Of a DNA stretch of 64,000 nucleotides, positions 18,154 through 29,316 are shown piece after piece. How positions within the stretch are numbered: the stretch's first letter is position 1; each line of letters starts with the position of its first letter. The position numbers and the translations under genes are program-made. This DNA comes from a virus, in IMG/VR virus record IMGVR_UViG_3300023284_001411, positions 1-64,000 of that record; one strand, written 5' to 3'. The notes beneath the pieces are model-generated. The model saw only the letters and a program-made list of their open reading frames with translations, made no database searches and had not been told where the DNA came from.

Positions 18154-18345
18154 CTAAATCTTACAATCCCGAAAATCCTCACTCTTCAAATTTTCGATCA
18201 TTCTCTTGAAGTCTTTATTCATTTTCAGCAACTCAGTCATAGCGCCAATGCGATTTGGGGCCGTTCTCAAAAAAGCTAAACTGGGAAGAGCCCGAGCAAA
18301 CAACTCTCGCTCACGTTGTTCTTTTGTTCGCCAGCGCCAGTTCAT
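18154..18345 (-). CDS. Small basic protein upstream of terminase
   Basis: 63 aa from ATG 18345 (MNWRWRTKEQRERELFARAL), overlapping the upstream stop as ATGA. Highly charged and helical (NKDFKRMIENLKSEDFRD). It sits 15 nt before terL, the normal place of a small terminase subunit, but it is short for that role and has no recognisable HTH. Function unknown. Confidence 0.6.
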   Translation of the reverse strand: MNWRWRTKEQRERELFARALPSLAFLRTAPNRIGAMTELLKMNKDFKRMIENLKSEDFRDCKI

Positions 18346-19205
18346 GAACAAAGAAACTCCATCATCGGCCGTACCCACGGCCCTCTCTGCTTGTGTATCG
18401 CGTAAGCATCGATAAAATCAGATGTCACTTGTACACCCGCCTGCCGCACGTAGCGGAGCGGGTCGACGTAGATGCGGATGGTGAACAGTATCGCGCCGGT
18501 CTCCGGCAAGCGGCGAACGGTCTGCCGCTCCGAGCGGACGTAGAGAAGATCCCCGGCGTTGTGCTTGTCGAGCCCGGCCCGGTCCTCCAGGGTCGTCCGC
18601 TCGTACAGACGGTTCGGGAAGTCGTGGCGCAGATGCGGGCAGGCGTAAACGAACCAGTTCGCCCGGCACATGATCTGCCCCGGCTCGAGCTTCGCCAGCT
18701 TCTTCGCGATGCCGCGCTGGAACTTCTCGGTCGAGATGTCCTTATGGACACCGACGGTGTCCTCCCCCATCTTCTCGTCCAGGGTCCAGCTCGTAGGGAA
18801 GCAGACCGATGCCGCGACGAGCTTGTCATCCTGCATGATGCAGAGGTCATCCTGGACGGCGGCCGAGATGCCGCGGAGACGTTCATGGTAGACCGCGCCC
18901 CAGTAGAAATCTCCATCGGGAAATTGTTCGCAGAGGTAACTTGATATTAGACTCCAGACCTCCATCTGCTCTTCGTCCGTGTCTGGCATCGCCCGAAAAC
19001 AATCATCCGGCCCCGGTCCCATGAGATACCGCTGTTTGAGCTCGAGCTGGATCTCCTGGTCCTCGTCGAAGGACAGCCAGGGCTCGTCCGCCGGCAAGGG
19101 CTCCAGGTCGAGCCGCGGTCCGCCCCGGCCGGTAGCCCAGGGCACGTGGGCGAGCTTCGTCCGCCGCGTGGCGAGTGTGTTGAGGGTGTCGGTGGAGATG
19201 GCCAT
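18342..19205 (-). CDS. Heme-dependent oxidative N-demethylase-like protein (DUF3445)
   Basis: 287 aa from ATG 19205 (MAISTDTLN), overlapping the upstream stop as TGATG. Signature segments of the DUF3445/HDMA family are present: DDKLVAASVCFPTSWTLDEKMG (CFPTSW at 135-140), the His-containing GVHKDIS (H154), RANWFVYACP (181-190) and a C-terminal SERQTVRRLPETGAILFTIR. Characterised relatives are heme enzymes that demethylate dimethylamine-type substrates. The substrate here is unknown. It is a metabolic-type gene wedged directly upstream of the packaging genes. Confidence 0.8.
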   Translation of the reverse strand: MAISTDTLNTLATRRTKLAHVPWATGRGGPRLDLEPLPADEPWLSFDEDQEIQLELKQRYLMGPGPDDCFRAMPDTDEEQMEVWSLISSYLCEQFPDGDFYWGAVYHERLRGISAAVQDDLCIMQDDKLVAASVCFPTSWTLDEKMGEDTVGVHKDISTEKFQRGIAKKLAKLEPGQIMCRANWFVYACPHLRHDFPNRLYERTTLEDRAGLDKHNAGDLLYVRSERQTVRRLPETGAILFTIRIYVDPLRYVRQAGVQVTSDFIDAYAIHKQRGPWVRPMMEFLCS

Positions 19206-19405
19206 CAGTCCCACTCCTCGTCGTCCGCCGCCGCGGCGGCTATGGAGGCTATCAAGATGCGTTCCCGTTCCGACAAGGAGGACCAGTCTTTCTCGACCCA
19301 AAACGGCACATGGTTTCGCCAGTCGTGAACTTTCTCCGTTCTGCTGAATGTGTCATCTGACAGGTCGCCAGGACACAAGTCCTCTTTGAGTTTTTGAAGG
19401 TTCAT
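19205..19405 (-). CDS. Small hypothetical protein
   Basis: 66 aa from ATG 19405 (MNLQKLKEDLCPGDLSDDTF), overlapping the upstream stop as ATGA. Acidic and helical, with WVEKDWSSLSERERILIASI and an Ala-rich C-terminus. No motif recognised. It is translationally coupled to the DUF3445 gene by a TGATG overlap. Confidence 0.6.
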   Translation of the reverse strand: MNLQKLKEDLCPGDLSDDTFSRTEKVHDWRNHVPFWVEKDWSSLSERERILIASIAAAAADDEEWD

Positions 19406-23942: not shown

Positions 23943-24214
23943 GGTACGTTGAACACACCACACATTCTGATGACACGGCCCTGATTGCGAAGGACATTGA
24001 GCGCATAGCTCGCAACCATCCGCGAGCGTTCGCACGCGGAGCAGTCCTCGGCTACTTCCTCCACGTTATAGGCCCACGGAGACCCCTTCTTCAGAAAGGC
24101 GAAGACGGCATTCGGCAAGGCATCAGGGTCGCCGGGCACCCGAAGCATCATGCCCCGGTCCCACTTGACCCGTCGTCGCCCGCCCTTGTCGTGGTTCCGT
24201 GTCCGGGAGCCCAT
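23939..24214 (-). CDS. Hypothetical protein with winged-helix-like features
   Basis: 91 aa with a basic N-terminus (MGSRTRNHDKGGRRRVKWDR). NAVFAFLKKGSPWAYNVEEV and ASYALNVLRNQGRVIRMCGV look like helix 1, the recognition helix and the wing of a small winged HTH. DCSAC is in the middle. TAATG overlap with the co-chaperonin gene. Tentative DNA-binding call only. Confidence 0.5.
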   Translation of the reverse strand: MGSRTRNHDKGGRRRVKWDRGMMLRVPGDPDALPNAVFAFLKKGSPWAYNVEEVAEDCSACERSRMVASYALNVLRNQGRVIRMCGVFNVP

Positions 24215-24537
24215 TACTTACCCAGGACAGAGTCACGAACCTCGTTGGTCACATCAATTGCCAATTTGGTAGCCCCTGCGTCATCAATGAGTTTGGCCCA
24301 GATGTAGTCGACGTCGATGATTGTATAGGTAACGCCGTCGATCGTATGCTCAACGCCGTCCCAACCGGTTAGCAGGACCTTAGCCTCAAGTCCAATTTGG
24401 ATGACGTTCGGCCCGATGGCGACGACCGTTCCGACGGGATCAAACTTCGGCTTTTCGTCCGCTTCCTTTTCCTCGAGCGTCAGGGGCAGAGCGATTCTCT
24501 CAACGACGATGAATTTTCCGAGCGGTTCGAGCTTCAT
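24214..24537 (-). CDS. GroES-like co-chaperonin
   Basis: 107 aa with CCAGGAGACCCTT before the ATG. The GroES beta-barrel pattern is clear: LEPLGKFIVVERIALP at the start, GTVVAIGPNVIQIGLEAKVL in the middle and VDYIWAKL at the end of the barrel (compare P-L-x-D-R-V-x-V, G-x-V-V-A-x-G, D-V-V-L-F and ED-I-L-A-x-v). It would cap host GroEL to fold phage proteins, as T4 gp31 does. Residues 90-107 form a helical extension. No phage GroEL is visible. Confidence 0.8.
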   Translation of the reverse strand: MKLEPLGKFIVVERIALPLTLEEKEADEKPKFDPVGTVVAIGPNVIQIGLEAKVLLTGWDGVEHTIDGVTYTIIDVDYIWAKLIDDAGATKLAIDVTNEVRDSVLGK

Positions 24538-25064: not shown

Positions 25065-25438
25065 TTTCTAACCTCCTTATTTGAGCTCTGAAAACGGGAC
25101 GGATGAGGTATAACCAAGCAATCCACGTTCCCGCACGTGACCCGGTCCAGGGGCTTGGGGTCAGCGTAGAAGGCCGCGGCCACGAGCCCGCCCATGAGGA
25201 TCAGGCGGTCGCCGGTCCTTCGGCAGTAGTCCATGAGCTCGTACGCCGTGCCGGCGGCCCGCGGGGCGTCCCAACCCTCCCCGGGCTCAAGGAGATTGAC
25301 GAAGGTGTACCGGTCCAGGTCCCCGACCATGGCCGTCAGCTGGTCCCGGGCCTTGCCCTCGGGAATGGCCGAGTAAAACGGGCTCAGCTTGTGGATGATG
25401 CTGGACGACTGGACGCGCTCACCGACGAGGTAGATCAC
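25043..25438 (-). CDS. Uracil-DNA glycosylase-superfamily-like protein
   Basis: 131 aa from a GTG (25438) that shares GTGA with the Ro stop, so it should be translationally coupled to the Ro gene. The pattern is UDG-like: FVNLLEPGEGWDAPRAAGTA (N-L-x-x-P), a central hydrophobic strand RLILMGGLVAAAFYAD (L-x-G-x-x-V-A-x-x-F) and CLVIPHPSRFQSSN (P-H-P-S motif with a following Asn). It is shorter than canonical UDGs and lacks a clear catalytic G-E-A-P-G. It could be a repair enzyme or a non-catalytic relative. Confidence 0.6.
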   Translation of the reverse strand: MIYLVGERVQSSSIIHKLSPFYSAIPEGKARDQLTAMVGDLDRYTFVNLLEPGEGWDAPRAAGTAYELMDYCRRTGDRLILMGGLVAAAFYADPKPLDRVTCGNVDCLVIPHPSRFQSSNKEVRKWVEEFC

Positions 25439-26958
25439 CCCGTCACGAACTCCCGCAGCACGGACGGCACCGAAGGATCGAAGCCCACGACGTCCAGCAT
25501 CCCCGGGTCGTTGGGGTCGGCGATGGAGAAGTTGTTCGCCAACATGGACACGACGATCAGTTTCGCGTTGGGATTGAGCTTTCGGCGGTACTTGTCGAGC
25601 GCGGCCTTCGGGTGAATGCCGCCGGCCCATGTCTGGTTGTCCGTGTAGACCACGAAGGCATCGACCTCGATGTTCTTGCGGAGCGCATAGGTCATCGGCT
25701 GCGCGCAGTCCGTCCCGCCGAAGGGAAGTTTCGACGTCTTCCGCAGGACCTCGGTATAGGTCATGTCCCGAGTCACCGAGAGCGGTGAGAATATGTGGGT
25801 GAACGCCATGGGCACGCACAGCGGCTCAGTCCTCATAGTCACCAGGAGCATGGCCGCCGCGGCCTCTCGGCAAGTGACCCCGACGACGCCGGCACAGTCG
25901 GCCCAGGTCATGGAGCCCGAGACGTCCAGGCCCAGGAGGAAGCGCTTCCCGGACGGCTTTACCTGGTCGAAGGACAGGCTGAAGGCCTCCTCGACCGCGG
26001 CCGAGATACCCGCGTCCACTTCCCATTTGAGGCTACCTCGCACGCCCTTTCCCTGCTTGTAGGTCTTGAGGGCCGAGAGCAGCTGGATCGGGTGAATACG
26101 GGACCTCTTGATCAGTACCGTGTCCGTCAGCCGGTTTTCGACGATCTTGTTCGCGTCCCAGCGTCCAGGACCCAGGACCTCCCGCGCCGAGAGCGCGCCG
26201 AGGTGCTTGAGGGTCGCCTGGTAGGGCATGAAAGGCAAGAGGGCCTGCCAAACGTCCGTCCGCTTCTTGAGCTCAGGGGTCAGCATCTCATGGGAGATGC
26301 GGCCCGACTCCTTGATCAGCTGGATACACTCGTCGAGGCCCAGCCCTTCGAAGGGGTCGTTCCGTCCCTGGACAATGGCCCGAAAGAGGTGGTTGAGGCG
26401 CCCATTCTTCGGGTGCGTTAGCCGCAGGAGGTCGCGATGTGACCAGCCCTCGCGCTGGATGTATTTCAAGCGCTGATAGTCGACATTCTCCGTGGTTTTC
26501 GACAGATACCAGCCCCGGATCATGCGCCGCGGCCGGCGTCCCCAGCCGCGGAGCTCATTGACGTAGTGGGCGAAGCGGAAGAGGTGAAAGCCCGTGCGGA
26601 CGGTGTTGTTGAAACGGTTTTCAACTATTCGCGCCGCCCGAGGGCTCAACGTACAGAGGGCCAGGGACAGCATGACCGGGTCCGGGCGCGCTGCACGGCC
26701 CTGGTTCCAGATGTCGCAGATCTCCTCCGCTGTTCGCTCAGGATCCTCGGCGAGGCACTCGTGGATCGCCTTCAGGTTCTCGCGAACGAGCGGCCCTTCC
26801 TTGGTGTAGTACGTCCCTCCCTCAGCGCCCAGGATCAAGAACCGGCGGAGCCGTTCGAACGGGTCGACGGTAAAAGAGAACCCTCCCGCGCTGTTTTCAA
26901 CTTGACCCGGGAGGGCCTCACTCTGGGGCGTGTCGAGGTGAGTGGCGTAATCCATCAT
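25435..26958 (-). CDS. rsr: Ro60/Rsr-family TROVE-vWA RNA-binding protein
   Basis: 507 aa. Residues ~25-330 form the TROVE HEAT-repeat ring (FERLRRFLILGAEGGTYY, SLALCTLSPRAARIVENRF, LPFMPYQATLKHLGALSARE). Residues ~335-507 form a von Willebrand A domain with an intact MIDAS: DVSGSM (345-350), GGTD (414-417) and YTDNQT (438-443). The segment NNFSIADPNDPGMLDVVGFD closely follows vertebrate Ro60. Ro proteins are ring-shaped and bind misfolded RNA in the cavity and Y RNA on the outside. Start ATG 26958 lies 14 nt after the U-tract of the last Y RNA (26972). A UDG-like gene is coupled downstream. Confidence 0.95.
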   Translation of the reverse strand: MMDYATHLDTPQSEALPGQVENSAGGFSFTVDPFERLRRFLILGAEGGTYYTKEGPLVRENLKAIHECLAEDPERTAEEICDIWNQGRAARPDPVMLSLALCTLSPRAARIVENRFNNTVRTGFHLFRFAHYVNELRGWGRRPRRMIRGWYLSKTTENVDYQRLKYIQREGWSHRDLLRLTHPKNGRLNHLFRAIVQGRNDPFEGLGLDECIQLIKESGRISHEMLTPELKKRTDVWQALLPFMPYQATLKHLGALSAREVLGPGRWDANKIVENRLTDTVLIKRSRIHPIQLLSALKTYKQGKGVRGSLKWEVDAGISAAVEEAFSLSFDQVKPSGKRFLLGLDVSGSMTWADCAGVVGVTCREAAAAMLLVTMRTEPLCVPMAFTHIFSPLSVTRDMTYTEVLRKTSKLPFGGTDCAQPMTYALRKNIEVDAFVVYTDNQTWAGGIHPKAALDKYRRKLNPNAKLIVVSMLANNFSIADPNDPGMLDVVGFDPSVPSVLREFVTG

Positions 26959-26971
26959 CCGTCCTTTCGAG

Positions 26972-27112
26972 AAAAATGCCGAGCAAGTTTGTGAACGCAG
27001 TTTAATAACTGGCGCTCTCGGCTGTCTGAGCTACCCCGACTCAATTGCCGGGGGCAGGTTTCGCACCTGCGACCTCCAGTTCCATGATAATCTACATTCG
27101 TCGGCTCAGCAA
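26972..27112 (-). ncRNA. Y RNA 1 (YrlA-like, with permuted tRNA module)
   Basis: Lower stem GCTGAGC/GCTCGGC with CCGA on the 5' side and ACAAACTTG on the 3' side, then TTTTT: the Ro-binding signature of Y RNAs. Upper stem AATGTAG/CTGCGTT. Inside lies a tRNA-like module in permuted order: half anticodon stem ACTGG, AGGTC, T-arm GCAGG-TGCGAAA-CCTGC, acceptor CCCCGGC, 6-nt linker, acceptor GTCGGGG, D-arm GCTC...GAGC, half anticodon stem CCAGT. All stems pair. It ends 14 nt before the Ro gene. Confidence 0.85.
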
Positions 27113-27121
27113 AACCTATCC

Positions 27122-27249
27122 AAAAAGAACCGAGCAAGGTGTGACCGTAGGATGTGCCTATGCCATTTGGCGACATCGCGCAAGGCAATGACGGGATTCG
27201 AACCCGCATTCTTCGTGAAAAGATAACCTACAATCGTCGGCTCGGTGAC
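27122..27249 (-). ncRNA. Y RNA 2 (YrlA-like, with permuted tRNA module)
   Basis: Lower stem ACCGAGC/GCTCGGT, with CCGACG opposite ACACCTTG and a TTCTTTTT end. Upper stem GATTGTAGG/CCTACGGTC (9 bp with G-U pairs). The loop carries a textbook T-arm, GCGGGTTCGAATCCCGT, then acceptor strand CATTGCC, a short turn, the opposite acceptor strand GCGATG and a D-arm GCC...GGC. The tRNA halves are circularly permuted, so it is not an ordinary tRNA gene. No full anticodon arm forms. Confidence 0.85.
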
Positions 27250-27261
27250 AGTACTGCAAAA

Positions 27262-27333
27262 CAAAAAGCCGAACAAGTTTGTAGCCGAGGGGGATACTTT
27301 ATGATGGTAACCCTCAGCCATCGGCTCGGCTAA
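27262..27333 (-). ncRNA. Y RNA 3 (short hairpin type)
   Basis: About 70 nt. Lower stem AGCCGAG/TTCGGCT with CCGATG opposite ACAAACTTG. Upper stem GCTGAGGG/CCCTCGGC (8 bp), loop opening with TTACC, TTTTT at the 3' end. It keeps the Ro-binding stem but lacks the tRNA-like module. Compensatory differences from copies 4 and 5 support the fold. Confidence 0.8.
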
Positions 27334-27352
27334 ACAGATTGGGCTCTAAATC

Positions 27353-27439: not shown

Positions 27440-27510
27440 AAGAAGGTCGAGCAAGTTTGTGACCAAAGGGTAAATGGTATGCTGATAACCTCCAGCCTTC
27501 GGCTCGACTG
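27440..27510 (-). ncRNA. Y RNA 5 (short hairpin type, promoter-proximal)
   Basis: Lower stem GTCGAG/CTCGAC, internal loop CCGAA opposite ACAAACTTG. Upper stem GGCTGGAGG/CCTTTGGTC with several G-U pairs, loop opening TTATC, 3' CTTCTTT. It begins about 6 nt after the -10 of the promoter at 27516-27545, so its 5' end may be the transcription start. Confidence 0.8.
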
Positions 27511-27515
27511 ATCCC

Positions 27516-27545
27516 AGTGTACCATCATCAGGGGTCCGAGGTCAA
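27516..27545 (-). promoter_or_regulatory. Promoter of the Y RNA-Ro locus (TTGACC-18-TACACT)
   Basis: Minus-strand -35 TTGACC at 27540-27545, 18-nt spacer, -10 TACACT at 27516-27521. The -35 overlaps the stop region of the exonuclease gene. No equally good promoter separates the five RNAs, so they and the Ro gene may form one transcript that is processed. Confidence 0.7.
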
Positions 27546-28234
27546 CCCTTTTTCTCGAGCAATTCCTTCTCGCGCTCCAAGGTGAGCTCGCCGGTCATGA
27601 CCCGGGTTCGCAGGAACACGGCGTAGGTGTCCTCCACGTCCCGCGCACAGTAGTCGTAGATCGTCTCGAGTTGGCCCTTGAGCCAGAGGCCGTAGACATC
27701 CTTCCCGACCGTGGCGCCCTTCCCAGGCCTTCCCACGACCCGCGCCAGTAGGTCCAGGCCGCCCGTGCAGCGGAAAGCGCCGAACTCCGTCATCCACTCC
27801 ATCAGATCGATCCGGTCAGAGGTGAACCGGTAGCGGTAACCGAACTTCGGGCCGGCGTAGTAGGCCGGGCACGATACACCGTACCGGAAGGCTGTCATGG
27901 ACAGGAGGGGGAGGTCGAAGCCCCGCCCGTTGAAGTCCACGAGGATCGGGCGATGCTTCTGGACACCTTCCCAGAAGCGCTGGGCAATCTCCTGAGCGGA
28001 ACCCTTAATGACGCCCGTCTTCTCGATCTTGAACCCCGCATCCAGGGCCAGGAAGGCCACGCAGATCGGTACCTGGTAAGTGACCGGGATGAAGTCAGAG
28101 CCCTTGTCCGCGAGGAGGTCCGCCTGGTATTGGCCGACGGTCTCGGAGCCACTCCAATCCTCGGGGTAGCCCCGGGAGTCCCGGATCAGTGTCCCGTCGG
28201 GCCGCGACTCGCAGTCGTAGACAAGGTACCTCAT
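27542..28234 (-). CDS. DEDD-family 3'-5' exonuclease
   Basis: 230 aa from ATG 28234, overlapping the upstream stop as ATGA. Exonuclease motif I is LVYDCESR (Asp7, Glu9). Motif II is DFNGRGFDLPLL, the N-x-x-x-F-D core. Motif III is YCARDVEDTYAVFL (Y-x-x-x-D). The arrangement matches stand-alone PolB-type 3'-5' exonucleases. It is separate from the exonuclease domain fused to the family A polymerase. A role in nucleic acid degradation or repair is likely. It is the last gene before the Y RNA promoter. Confidence 0.85.
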   Translation of the reverse strand: MRYLVYDCESRPDGTLIRDSRGYPEDWSGSETVGQYQADLLADKGSDFIPVTYQVPICVAFLALDAGFKIEKTGVIKGSAQEIAQRFWEGVQKHRPILVDFNGRGFDLPLLSMTAFRYGVSCPAYYAGPKFGYRYRFTSDRIDLMEWMTEFGAFRCTGGLDLLARVVGRPGKGATVGKDVYGLWLKGQLETIYDYCARDVEDTYAVFLRTRVMTGELTLEREKELLEKKG

Positions 28235-29316
28235 TCCGGAAACCTTCCAAACTTGACACCATCGAGCCTGAACCAAGGAGACTTCACATCCAAGGGATTA
28301 CCGATCACGATCATCTCGAGAAAGTCACGAAACAACGGCTCATAATCTGCCTTGGGAAGAAAAACCTCATTCGGTTTTGGGTCACAGGCCAGGGCCTTCG
28401 CCACTGTTCTCCAACCGTTCTTGGTATCCCCGCTCGAGCGCTCCATCCACTCATCAAGATCTCCAGCCTTAGCGTGCTCCACGAGCTCGTCGAGCATCGT
28501 CATAGTCATGGGCTGATGGAGTTCAAATTCTCCGCCGCATTTGAACAACACCGCCTGAGCGCAGTCGCCATCGTGCAGCGGCTTCGACTCGGGGTTCTCC
28601 GGGTTACCGGTCCACCACACATAGCCACTGGTCACAGCCATCCCGCAGTGGCCGCACGGGCCATGCCCCATGTGTGGGGGAGGGCCGAGCTGGCCGACCT
28701 GGCCGACCTGGTCAGCTGTAAAGAAAAACTTATCCGGCTCAAACGGAGCGTCCTTGGGGAAGTCGAGAGATAAAGTACCATCACCCTCATTCGACCGAAA
28801 CTCAACGCCACTGATTTTGACTTTCGCGGAAGTGGACGCCACATCAGGATCATCCATCCGTATAGCATGCTCCACCAACTGGTCGAATGCCTTGGGTTCC
28901 ATGTAAACGACCGAGGGCTTCGGATAGGCCTGGGTATGGGAGAGGATGAAGTGCCCCATGCTATATATCTCAATCGCGGGGGTGGTGTCCACAGTATGAA
29001 CGGAGTTCCCATCTGTGGCTTCCGGCGCCAGGGTTTTCCCTTTCCCCACCACTCCTTCACGGATACAGGAATTACACACTTGCCCATGGAGCCGAGGAGC
29101 GTTGCCACCGCAAAACGGGCAACAGCCCTTGGCCATGACCGGATTCGACCGAAAAGCCTCCTTACCATAGTCCAGGACCTGGCCCCAGGAGTCCTTTGAC
29201 GCCTCCGCGGGCGCCCCGGCAATGTCGATCAGGGTCCGCTTCGCGCAGTCCTCGGCGTGTTGCTCGAGGGGGAGGTCCGGGTCAGAGAGTAGGCATCGAC
29301 AGCTGCAGTGTATCAT
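28231..29316 (-). CDS. Cys-rich protein with C-x-C-R-C-L-L-x-D-P module
   Basis: 361 aa. The N-terminus IHCSCRCLLSDPDLPLEQHA followed by EDCA is shared with the proteins at 20583-20840 and 34900-36753. A second Cys cluster, CCPFCGGNAPRLHGQVCNSC, is at ~75-95 and a third, HGPCGHCGMAVTSGYVW, at ~215. The rest is unassigned. Repeated zinc modules plus acidic helices suggest a scaffold or host-protein-binding role. The start overlaps the upstream stop. Confidence 0.6.
   Translation of the reverse strand: MIHCSCRCLLSDPDLPLEQHAEDCAKRTLIDIAGAPAEASKDSWGQVLDYGKEAFRSNPVMAKGCCPFCGGNAPRLHGQVCNSCIREGVVGKGKTLAPEATDGNSVHTVDTTPAIEIYSMGHFILSHTQAYPKPSVVYMEPKAFDQLVEHAIRMDDPDVASTSAKVKISGVEFRSNEGDGTLSLDFPKDAPFEPDKFFFTADQVGQVGQLGPPPHMGHGPCGHCGMAVTSGYVWWTGNPENPESKPLHDGDCAQAVLFKCGGEFELHQPMTMTMLDELVEHAKAGDLDEWMERSSGDTKNGWRTVAKALACDPKPNEVFLPKADYEPLFRDFLEMIVIGNPLDVKSPWFRLDGVKFGRFPE

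What the first reader, a model, noticed from the sequence alone, without database searches (positions are those of the whole stretch)
26972..27249. Two of the Y RNAs carry circularly permuted tRNA modules
In units 1 and 2 the upper loop contains T-arm, 3' acceptor strand, short linker, 5' acceptor strand and D-arm in that order. Unit 1 also has a perfectly paired split anticodon stem (ACTGG with CCAGT). Unit 2 has a canonical GGTTCGAATCC T-loop. This is the tRNA mimicry known for YrlA RNAs, where the module is an effector-binding site. The two modules have different acceptor and T-stem sequences, so they are not simple copies.
Basis: partly seen in the sequence, partly recalled or inferred. 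Interest (0 to 1): 0.85.

Follow-up and report, generated by a model that had tools for sequence, protein, structure and literature searches.

The report
tRNA-mimicking Y RNAs in a phage
A tailed phage carries a gene for the RNA-binding ring protein Ro60 with five small Y RNAs in front of it, and two of these RNAs contain a tRNA-shaped module whose parts are in rearranged order; this is a new member of a known type of RNA, and related phages show the mimicry can go further than published descriptions say.

Summary
On the minus strand (27512-26972), between a PolB-exonuclease-like gene and a complete Ro60 gene of a tailed phage (IMG/VR record, 75 kb), lie five Y-RNA units that share a covarying Ro-binding stem. 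U1 and U2 hold T-arm, 3' acceptor strand, linker, 5' acceptor strand and D-arm, in that order. A covariance model built only from other Ro60 viruses finds these two modules and nothing comparable in the 64 kb (49.1 bits, E 6e-14; 41.0 bits, E 2e-11; next 12.8 bits). ARAGORN finds no tRNA as the sequence stands, but calls U1 a tRNA once its halves are swapped back (0 of 300 shuffles).

U1's odd T-loop (G55) is matched by A18 in its D-loop. The same coupled swap occurs in 31 of 35 G55 tRNAs beside bacterial Ro60 genes.

The identification as YrlA-type tRNA-mimic Y RNA is supported, but both modules fall far below Rfam's YrlA cut-off. Such modules occur in about half of 91 viral Ro60 loci examined. 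Half of the viral modules tested also keep an anticodon hairpin, absent from the YrlA descriptions I could read. Function (probably tethering Ro60 to a tRNA-recognising protein) is inferred, not shown. U2's D and acceptor arms are thermodynamically weak.

The parts
26972..27110 (-). U1: Y RNA with tRNA-like module, basal stem 27110-26978 plus U-tract
   Evidence: Rfam YrlA full-length sub-threshold match 29.0 bits; R2 49.1 bits; fold
27007..27081 (-). U1 permuted tRNA module: anticodon 3' strand AACTGG 27081-27076, variable loop AGGTC 27075-27071, T-arm 27070-27054, acceptor 3' strand 27053-27047, linker 27046-27041, acceptor 5' strand 27040-27034, T8-A9 27033-27032, D-arm 27031-27014, anticodon 5' strand CCAGTT 27012-27007
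   Evidence: R2 hit 27077-27009 E 5.9e-14; de-permuted sequence called a tRNA by ARAGORN, 0/300 shuffles; split stem
27122..27246 (-). U2: Y RNA with tRNA-like module, basal stem ACCGAG/CTCGGT plus U-tract
   Evidence: RF01656 stem-bulge RNA model 26.3 bits and YrlA 18.1 bits; R2 41.0 bits
27156..27207 (-). U2 permuted tRNA module: T-arm 27207-27191, acceptor 3' strand 27190-27185, linker 27184-27180, acceptor 5' strand 27179-27174, TC 27173-27172, D-arm 27171-27156
   Evidence: R2 hit 27214-27151 E 2.1e-11; descriptor top hit
27210..27223 (-). U2 hairpin TCTT-TTCACG-AAGA, where related RNAs have an anticodon arm (6-nt loop here, so not a canonical anticodon)
   Evidence: sequence; fold; comparison
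27263..27334 (-). U3: minimal Y RNA without tRNA module
   Evidence: window-free Ro-stem model R1 E 6.2e-7; metazoan Y_RNA RF00019 30.4 bits
27355..27428 (-). U4: minimal Y RNA without tRNA module
   Evidence: RF01656 20.9 bits; shared covarying stem
27441..27512 (-). U5: minimal Y RNA without tRNA module
   Evidence: window-free Ro-stem model R1 E 9e-5; RF01656 22.7 bits
27516..27545 (-). sigma70-like promoter candidate TTGACC-18-TACACT with extended -10 TG, just upstream of U5
   Evidence: consensus match only
25435..26958 (-). Ro60 (TROVE + Ro60 vWA domain), 507 aa, first gene downstream of the array on the same strand
   Evidence: Pfam PF25045 E 4.6e-64 and PF05731 5.1e-27; PDB Ro60 and D. 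radiodurans Rsr E about 1e-100; PHROG 850
27542..28276 (-). PolB-type 3'-5' exonuclease-like gene upstream of the array (neighbour, function in the system unknown)
   Evidence: PF10108 E 3.4e-44

Best explanation
The five units are phage-encoded Y RNAs of the adjacent phage Ro60 protein. Each binds Ro60 through the conserved basal stem. Three (U3-U5) are minimal Y RNAs. In U1 and U2 the upper loop has become a tRNA-like body: a tRNA whose chain ends have been moved to the anticodon region, where they run into the Y stem, while the two acceptor strands are joined by a short linker. Such an RNA cannot be aminoacylated or decode. Shown here: anatomy, strand, linkage to Ro60, homology to other Ro60-linked modules, and the compensated D-loop/T-loop elbow of U1. 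Inferred: transcription from the promoter before U5, with the units released by processing or by termination at the U-tract after each one; binding to Ro60; and docking of the Ro60 ring onto a protein that recognises the tRNA elbow and acceptor, most likely the host exoribonuclease PNPase as in D. radiodurans, so that host or phage structured RNA is handled during infection.
For: Ro60 gene with both domains directly downstream on the same strand. A Ro-stem model from other phages finds U3 and U5 and nothing else in 64 kb. The five stems pair in 98.7% of cells with 6 pairs changed on both sides; no shuffle or slide matches this. The tRNA-module model from other viruses finds exactly U1 and U2, also in the whole 75-kb record. 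ARAGORN calls de-permuted U1 a tRNA, 0 of 300 shuffles. U1's G55 is coupled to A18; the same coupling is seen in 31 of 35 distinct G55 tRNA D/T pairs beside other Ro60 genes against 19 of 290 T55 ones (Fisher 6e-26), which argues for a real tertiary elbow. The same arrangement (Y units on the Ro60 strand, often several, some with tRNA modules) recurs in isolated phages, IMG/VR viruses and bacteria. The record holds no ordinary tRNA gene. Published: the bacterial Y RNA tRNA-like region tethers Rsr to PNPase (PMC6181284, PMC8394870).
Against: No expression data. U2's acceptor and D arms are not in the minimum-energy fold (pair probabilities 0.01-0.05). U1, U2 and U4 were not found by the Ro-stem model R1 on its own. 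Both modules are far below Rfam's YrlA threshold. Tethering to PNPase is transferred from D. radiodurans; nothing here tests it. No intrinsic terminator was found by the consensus scan.
Confidence: 0.75

Rival explanations
1. The modules are decoys: by mimicking tRNA they titrate host enzymes that act on tRNA (tRNA-cleaving defence nucleases, modification enzymes), with Ro60 stabilising the decoy.
For: Modules in related arrays have varied acceptor stems and D-arm classes, and about half keep an anticodon hairpin with varied anticodons. Hughes et al. suggest YrlA could competitively inhibit a tRNA nuclease (PMC7790460).
Against: U1 and U2 themselves have no anticodon loop, so anticodon nucleases are unlikely targets. 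No host or defence system is known for this phage. The three minimal units need another explanation.
Confidence: 0.25
2. The array is chiefly a structured leader of the Ro60 mRNA: Ro60 binds its own leader stems and so limits its own synthesis; the tRNA modules stabilise the leader or attract RNase P or RNase E processing.
For: The array lies immediately upstream of the Ro60 ribosome-binding site, and one promoter candidate precedes it.
Against: U-tracts follow each unit, which suits separate RNAs. In other phages Y units also lie downstream of Ro60 or within tRNA clusters, where a leader role is impossible.
Confidence: 0.12
3. Permuted tRNA genes that mature into working tRNAs.
For: The order of parts is that of a circularly permuted tRNA; de-permuted U1 is accepted by ARAGORN when given an anticodon loop.
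Against: The native sequence has no anticodon loop: the anticodon stem strands of U1 lead into a long Ro-binding stem, and U2 has no anticodon stem. No CCA. ARAGORN and Rfam tRNA searches find nothing.
Confidence: 0.02
4. Chance or decayed tRNA remnants without function.
For: U2's acceptor and D arms are weak in the energy model.
Against: Two modules in adjacent units, absent elsewhere in 75 kb, E 1e-11 or better with a window-free model; compensated elbow in U1; covarying Ro stems.
Confidence: 0.03

Closest known systems
YrlA RNA (Rfam RF02553; Salmonella Typhimurium YrlA, PDB 6CU1)
   Same: Y stem for Rsr/Ro60; T-arm, acceptor, D-arm in the same permuted order; split anticodon stem as in U1 (Rfam consensus cgcc/ggcg).
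   Different: 29.0 and 18.1 bits (23.2 in the whole-record search) against a cut-off of 69. U1 has G55 with A18 instead of U55 with G18; U2 has a hairpin in place of the anticodon stem. Encoded by a phage in an array of five.
Deinococcus radiodurans Rsr/Y RNA/PNPase complex (RYPER)
   Same: Ro60 homologue (E 1e-100 to Rsr 2NVO) with adjacent Y RNA; published tether to PNPase through a T-arm-like hairpin (PMC6181284).
   Different: No PNPase partner was identified here; tethering not tested.
Y RNAs of mycobacteriophages and other actinophages (Sebata, Sparky, prophiGD43A-5, Cashline, FuzzBuster, Trina)
   Same: Ro60 gene with several Y units on the same strand, mixing minimal and tRNA-type units. 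Phage Y RNAs are already mentioned in the literature (PMC12282133, PMC7765460, citing Chen 2014 and Sim and Wolin 2018).
   Different: No sequence relative of this array was found; the Ro60 is at most 42.4% identical to that of an isolated phage and 49% to any viral contig.
Metazoan Y RNA (RF00019) and nematode stem-bulge RNA (RF01656)
   Same: Minimal units U3-U5 share the CCGA bulge, GGUUAUC and the ACUUG strand.
   Different: Below both families' gathering scores; prokaryotic virus; no Pol III context.

Membership tests
Bacterial Y RNA with tRNA-like module (YrlA type) | Ro60/Rsr-binding basal stem with conserved internal loop | tested here: met
   Five stems covary (98.7% of cells paired); U3 and U5 found by window-free model R1; U1 and U2 share the same stem and loop letters but were not found by R1 alone
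Bacterial Y RNA with tRNA-like module (YrlA type) | T-arm, 3' acceptor, linker, 5' acceptor, D-arm in this order | tested here: met
   R2 49.1 and 41.0 bits, only two comparable hits in the window
Bacterial Y RNA with tRNA-like module (YrlA type) | Encoded next to an rsr/Ro60 gene | tested here: met
   Ro60 at 25435-26958, same strand, immediately downstream
Bacterial Y RNA with tRNA-like module (YrlA type) | Module modified by tRNA enzymes (TruB, DusA) and/or binds PNPase | not testable with these tools
   U2 has U55; U1 has G55 and so cannot receive pseudouridine 55 (sequence)
Rfam RF02553 YrlA | Score at or above the gathering threshold (69 bits) | tested here: not met
   29.0 bits for U1, 18.1 bits for U2 core; 29.0 and 23.2 in the whole-record search
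Ordinary tRNA gene | Cloverleaf with anticodon loop in natural order | tested here: not met
   ARAGORN 0 genes; RF00005 no match in the record
Permuted tRNA gene (matures to tRNA) | Complete anticodon arm and mature ends after processing | tested here: not met
   U1 anticodon strands open into the Y stem, U2 has no 7-nt anticodon loop
Metazoan Y RNA RF00019 | Score at or above the gathering threshold (38 bits) | tested here: not met
   U3 30.4 bits

The most novel reading that the evidence does not exclude
Ro60-carrying viruses, this phage among them, use arrays of Y RNAs as a panel of different tRNA mimics. Many are complete permuted tRNAs, with an anticodon arm of varied identity, a compensated elbow (G18-U55 or A18-G55) and sometimes the ACCA end kept in the linker, rather than the D/T/acceptor core described for YrlA. 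The panel would be presented on the Ro60 ring to recruit or distract tRNA-acting host enzymes.
Probability: 0.3. Interest if true: 0.8.

Novelty: new member of a known kind. Interest (0 to 1): 0.5.

Why it matters
Ro60 is a human autoantigen whose RNA partners are poorly understood outside a few species. This phage supplies a compact Ro60 with both minimal and tRNA-mimicking Y RNAs side by side, so the roles of stem and module can be separated in one system. The comparison made here shows that Rfam's YrlA model misses the whole phage group, that the mimicry is maintained down to a compensated tertiary contact, and that many viral Y RNAs keep an anticodon arm. These points make the question of what the tRNA mimic is for directly testable.

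Tried and rejected
Single-sequence search of viral contigs for the Ro60 protein found nothing; the alignment query did. Assigning each module to a tRNA isotype by nearest neighbour was inconclusive: leave-one-out accuracy is only 0.53-0.65 with the island tRNAs at hand, and U2 switched between Leu, Val and Pro. My impression that U2's D-arm resembles tRNA-Gln rests on memory of E. coli tRNA-Gln and was not confirmed. That arrays pair two different D-arm classes is true of many arrays by inspection, but no significance test was made. A first stem alignment of the five units had a misplaced gap and gave no covariation; the corrected one did. A genome-wide pattern for G55 T-loops was uninformative in GC-rich genomes. 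RtcB was sought in the phage record and not found. Chen 2014 (10.1261/rna.047241.114) is not held in the library, so its text could not be checked; the Sim and Wolin reviews and Wang 2018 were seen only as references and were not looked up.

Full report
What is there. The window is part of an IMG/VR virus record of 75,452 bases of a tailed phage: portal, major head and scaffold proteins, terminase large subunit and family-A DNA polymerase were found. On the minus strand, between a PolB-type exonuclease-like gene (27542-28276) and a Ro60 gene (25435-26958; TROVE and Ro60 vWA domains; 507 aa aligned to D. radiodurans Rsr and vertebrate Ro60 at E about 1e-100), lie five units of 70-140 nt. They are read on the minus strand, as is Ro60.

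The Ro-binding stem. Sub-threshold Rfam matches already point to Y RNAs: U3 to metazoan Y_RNA (30.4 bits), U2, U4 and U5 to nematode stem-bulge RNA, U1 to YrlA (29.0 bits). A covariance model built from 18 Y units of other phages, with no window sequence (A3, R1), finds U3 (E 6.2e-7) and U5 (E 9e-5) and nothing else at E up to 5 in the 64 kb. Aligned by hand-chosen segments, the stems of all five units pair in 98.7% of cells, with six pairs changed on both sides; none of 500 shuffles reaches the observed pairing or covariation score, and sliding the partner by one column drops pairing to 45-48%. A promoter-like site (TTGACC-18-TACACT with TG before the -10) ends 4 bases before U5, and each unit is followed by a U-rich tract (34 T of 50 bases against 29% background, tails chosen by eye). 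The consensus scan saw no standard intrinsic terminator.

The tRNA modules. The order in both units is T-arm, 3' acceptor strand, linker, 5' acceptor strand, D-arm. A simple descriptor of that order ranks U2 and U1 first and second in the window on both strands; ten block-shuffled windows never reach their scores. A covariance model (R2) made from 42 modules of other Ro60 viruses (A5) gives U1 49.1 bits (E 5.9e-14) and U2 41.0 bits (E 2.1e-11); the next hit scores 12.8 bits. The same two are the only matches in the whole record. The 42 training modules were chosen with a descriptor that demands pairing, so the strong pair counts are partly built in; the score of the window is not, as no window sequence was used. 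De-permuted U1, given a 7-nt anticodon loop, is called a tRNA by ARAGORN, against 0 of 300 shuffles. In its native form neither ARAGORN nor the Rfam tRNA model finds a tRNA in the window or record. The energy model supports the T-arm, acceptor and split anticodon stem of U1 and the T-arm of U2, but gives U2's acceptor and D-arm probabilities below 0.06, 2 kcal/mol above an alternative fold. ViennaRNA also misses the acceptor stem in 12% of ordinary tRNAs from these loci and in about 20% of other Ro60-linked modules, so this weakens but does not remove U2.

A compensated elbow. U1's T-loop reads UGCGAAA: position 55 is G, not U, and its D-loop has AG where tRNAs have G18-G19. Only one other module has G55 (locus L091), and it too has AG. 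In 355 ordinary tRNA genes near Ro60 in the fetched loci, G55 occurs in 35, all in bacterial tRNA clusters, mostly myxobacterial or deltaproteobacterial. Among distinct D/T pairs 31 of 35 with G55 have AG, against 19 of 290 with T55 (Fisher 6e-26; some of the 19 are parsing errors). So U1's unusual T-loop is one half of a coupled A18/G55 replacement. This is comparative evidence that its D- and T-loops touch as in a tRNA. It also implies that U1 cannot be modified to pseudouridine 55, unlike U2.

How general. Ro60 occurs in 345 of 50,697 phage records, and 349 candidate stretches in IMG/VR encode it. By my count, 49 of 91 viral Ro60 loci have an R2 match of 40 bits or more, nearly all on the Ro60 strand; many of these loci also supplied training sequences, and a few hits may be tandem tRNAs. 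Arrays that mix minimal and tRNA-type units are common: prophiGD43A-5 has five units, Sebata and FuzzBuster three each. Bacterial Ro60 loci show the same. Beyond YrlA's published D, T and acceptor arms (PMC8394870), 28 of 57 viral modules have a hairpin of three or more pairs with a 7-nt loop carrying T33 and a purine at 37, placed between the Y stem and the variable loop, as an anticodon arm would be; shuffled regions give 1.2 on average, maximum 5. One module per locus with dinucleotide-preserving shuffles gives 21 of 40 against 1.3, maximum 6. The anticodons are varied. Linkers begin NCCA in 8 of 57 against 0.55 expected. Neither feature is in U1 or U2: U1 has the open, split stem of YrlA, and U2 a hairpin with a 6-nt loop.

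What is known. Bacterial Y RNAs with tRNA-like modules are established. They bind Rsr through the stem and PNPase through the module in D. radiodurans, and Salmonella YrlA is a substrate of TruB and DusA (PMC8394870, PMC6181284). The structure 6CU1 shows the circular permutation (PMC11472068). Y RNAs were already reported in mycobacteriophages, and a Listeria phage with an Rsr-like protein makes three abundant RNAs upstream of it (PMC12282133). I therefore call the find a new member of a known kind. The anticodon-arm and A18/G55 observations were not found in the held literature, but key papers are not held, so their novelty is unproven.

Function. The most likely working is a Ro60 particle whose minimal Y RNAs gate the ring and whose U1/U2 forms tether it to a tRNA-recognising protein, PNPase being the best precedent. 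The decoy view is a real rival, more so for relatives that keep an anticodon arm. A pure leader function is unlikely because Y units elsewhere lie downstream of Ro60. Expression, Ro60 binding and partner identity are untested.

Noticed in passing
L002-L093 (viral Ro60 loci), e.g. L003 2191-2211, L008 1749-1768, L034 1919-1938: About half of viral tRNA-type Y RNAs keep a canonical anticodon hairpin (for example CCA-CTTGTAA-TGG, TCAC-CTGTTAA-GTGA, TCGT-CTGTGAA-ACGA) of varied identity.
   Followed up: partly
L017 2042, L032 2219, L013 2318, L039 2344, L045 1760 (module starts): In 8 of 57 viral modules the linker between the acceptor strands begins with NCCA, as if the tRNA 3' end had been kept (0.55 expected).
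   Followed up: partly
L114, L115, L131, L145-L147, L153, L158, L160, L163, L164, L170, L171: Ordinary tRNA genes in clusters beside bacterial Ro60 genes often have G55 in the T-loop coupled to A18-G19 in the D-loop (31 of 35 distinct pairs).
   Followed up: partly
L172 (Minicystis rosea), L162, L114, L115, L131, L158, L171: Ro60 genes of myxobacteria and relatives lie inside dense tRNA gene clusters (up to 30 ARAGORN tRNAs in 6.6 kb).
   Followed up: no
L008 1717-1795; L013 2137-2345: Annotated 'tRNA-Thr (tgt)' of prophage prophiGD43A-5 and 'tRNA-OTHER' pseudogene of Rhodococcus phage Trina overlap Y RNAs with permuted tRNA modules and look misannotated.
   Followed up: partly
L006 4234-4645, 4955-5011; L005 4444-4865: tmRNA matches in Gordonia phages GMA2 and Sixama, and a Pistol ribozyme match in GMA2, none listed among the annotated features (annotation).
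   Followed up: no
window 18342-19301 (-): Gene for a HODM-like haem-dependent oxidative N-demethylase alpha subunit (PF11927, E 2e-36) in a tailed phage.
   Followed up: no
window 24214-24537 (-): GroES/Cpn10-like gene (PF00166, E 8e-5).
   Followed up: no
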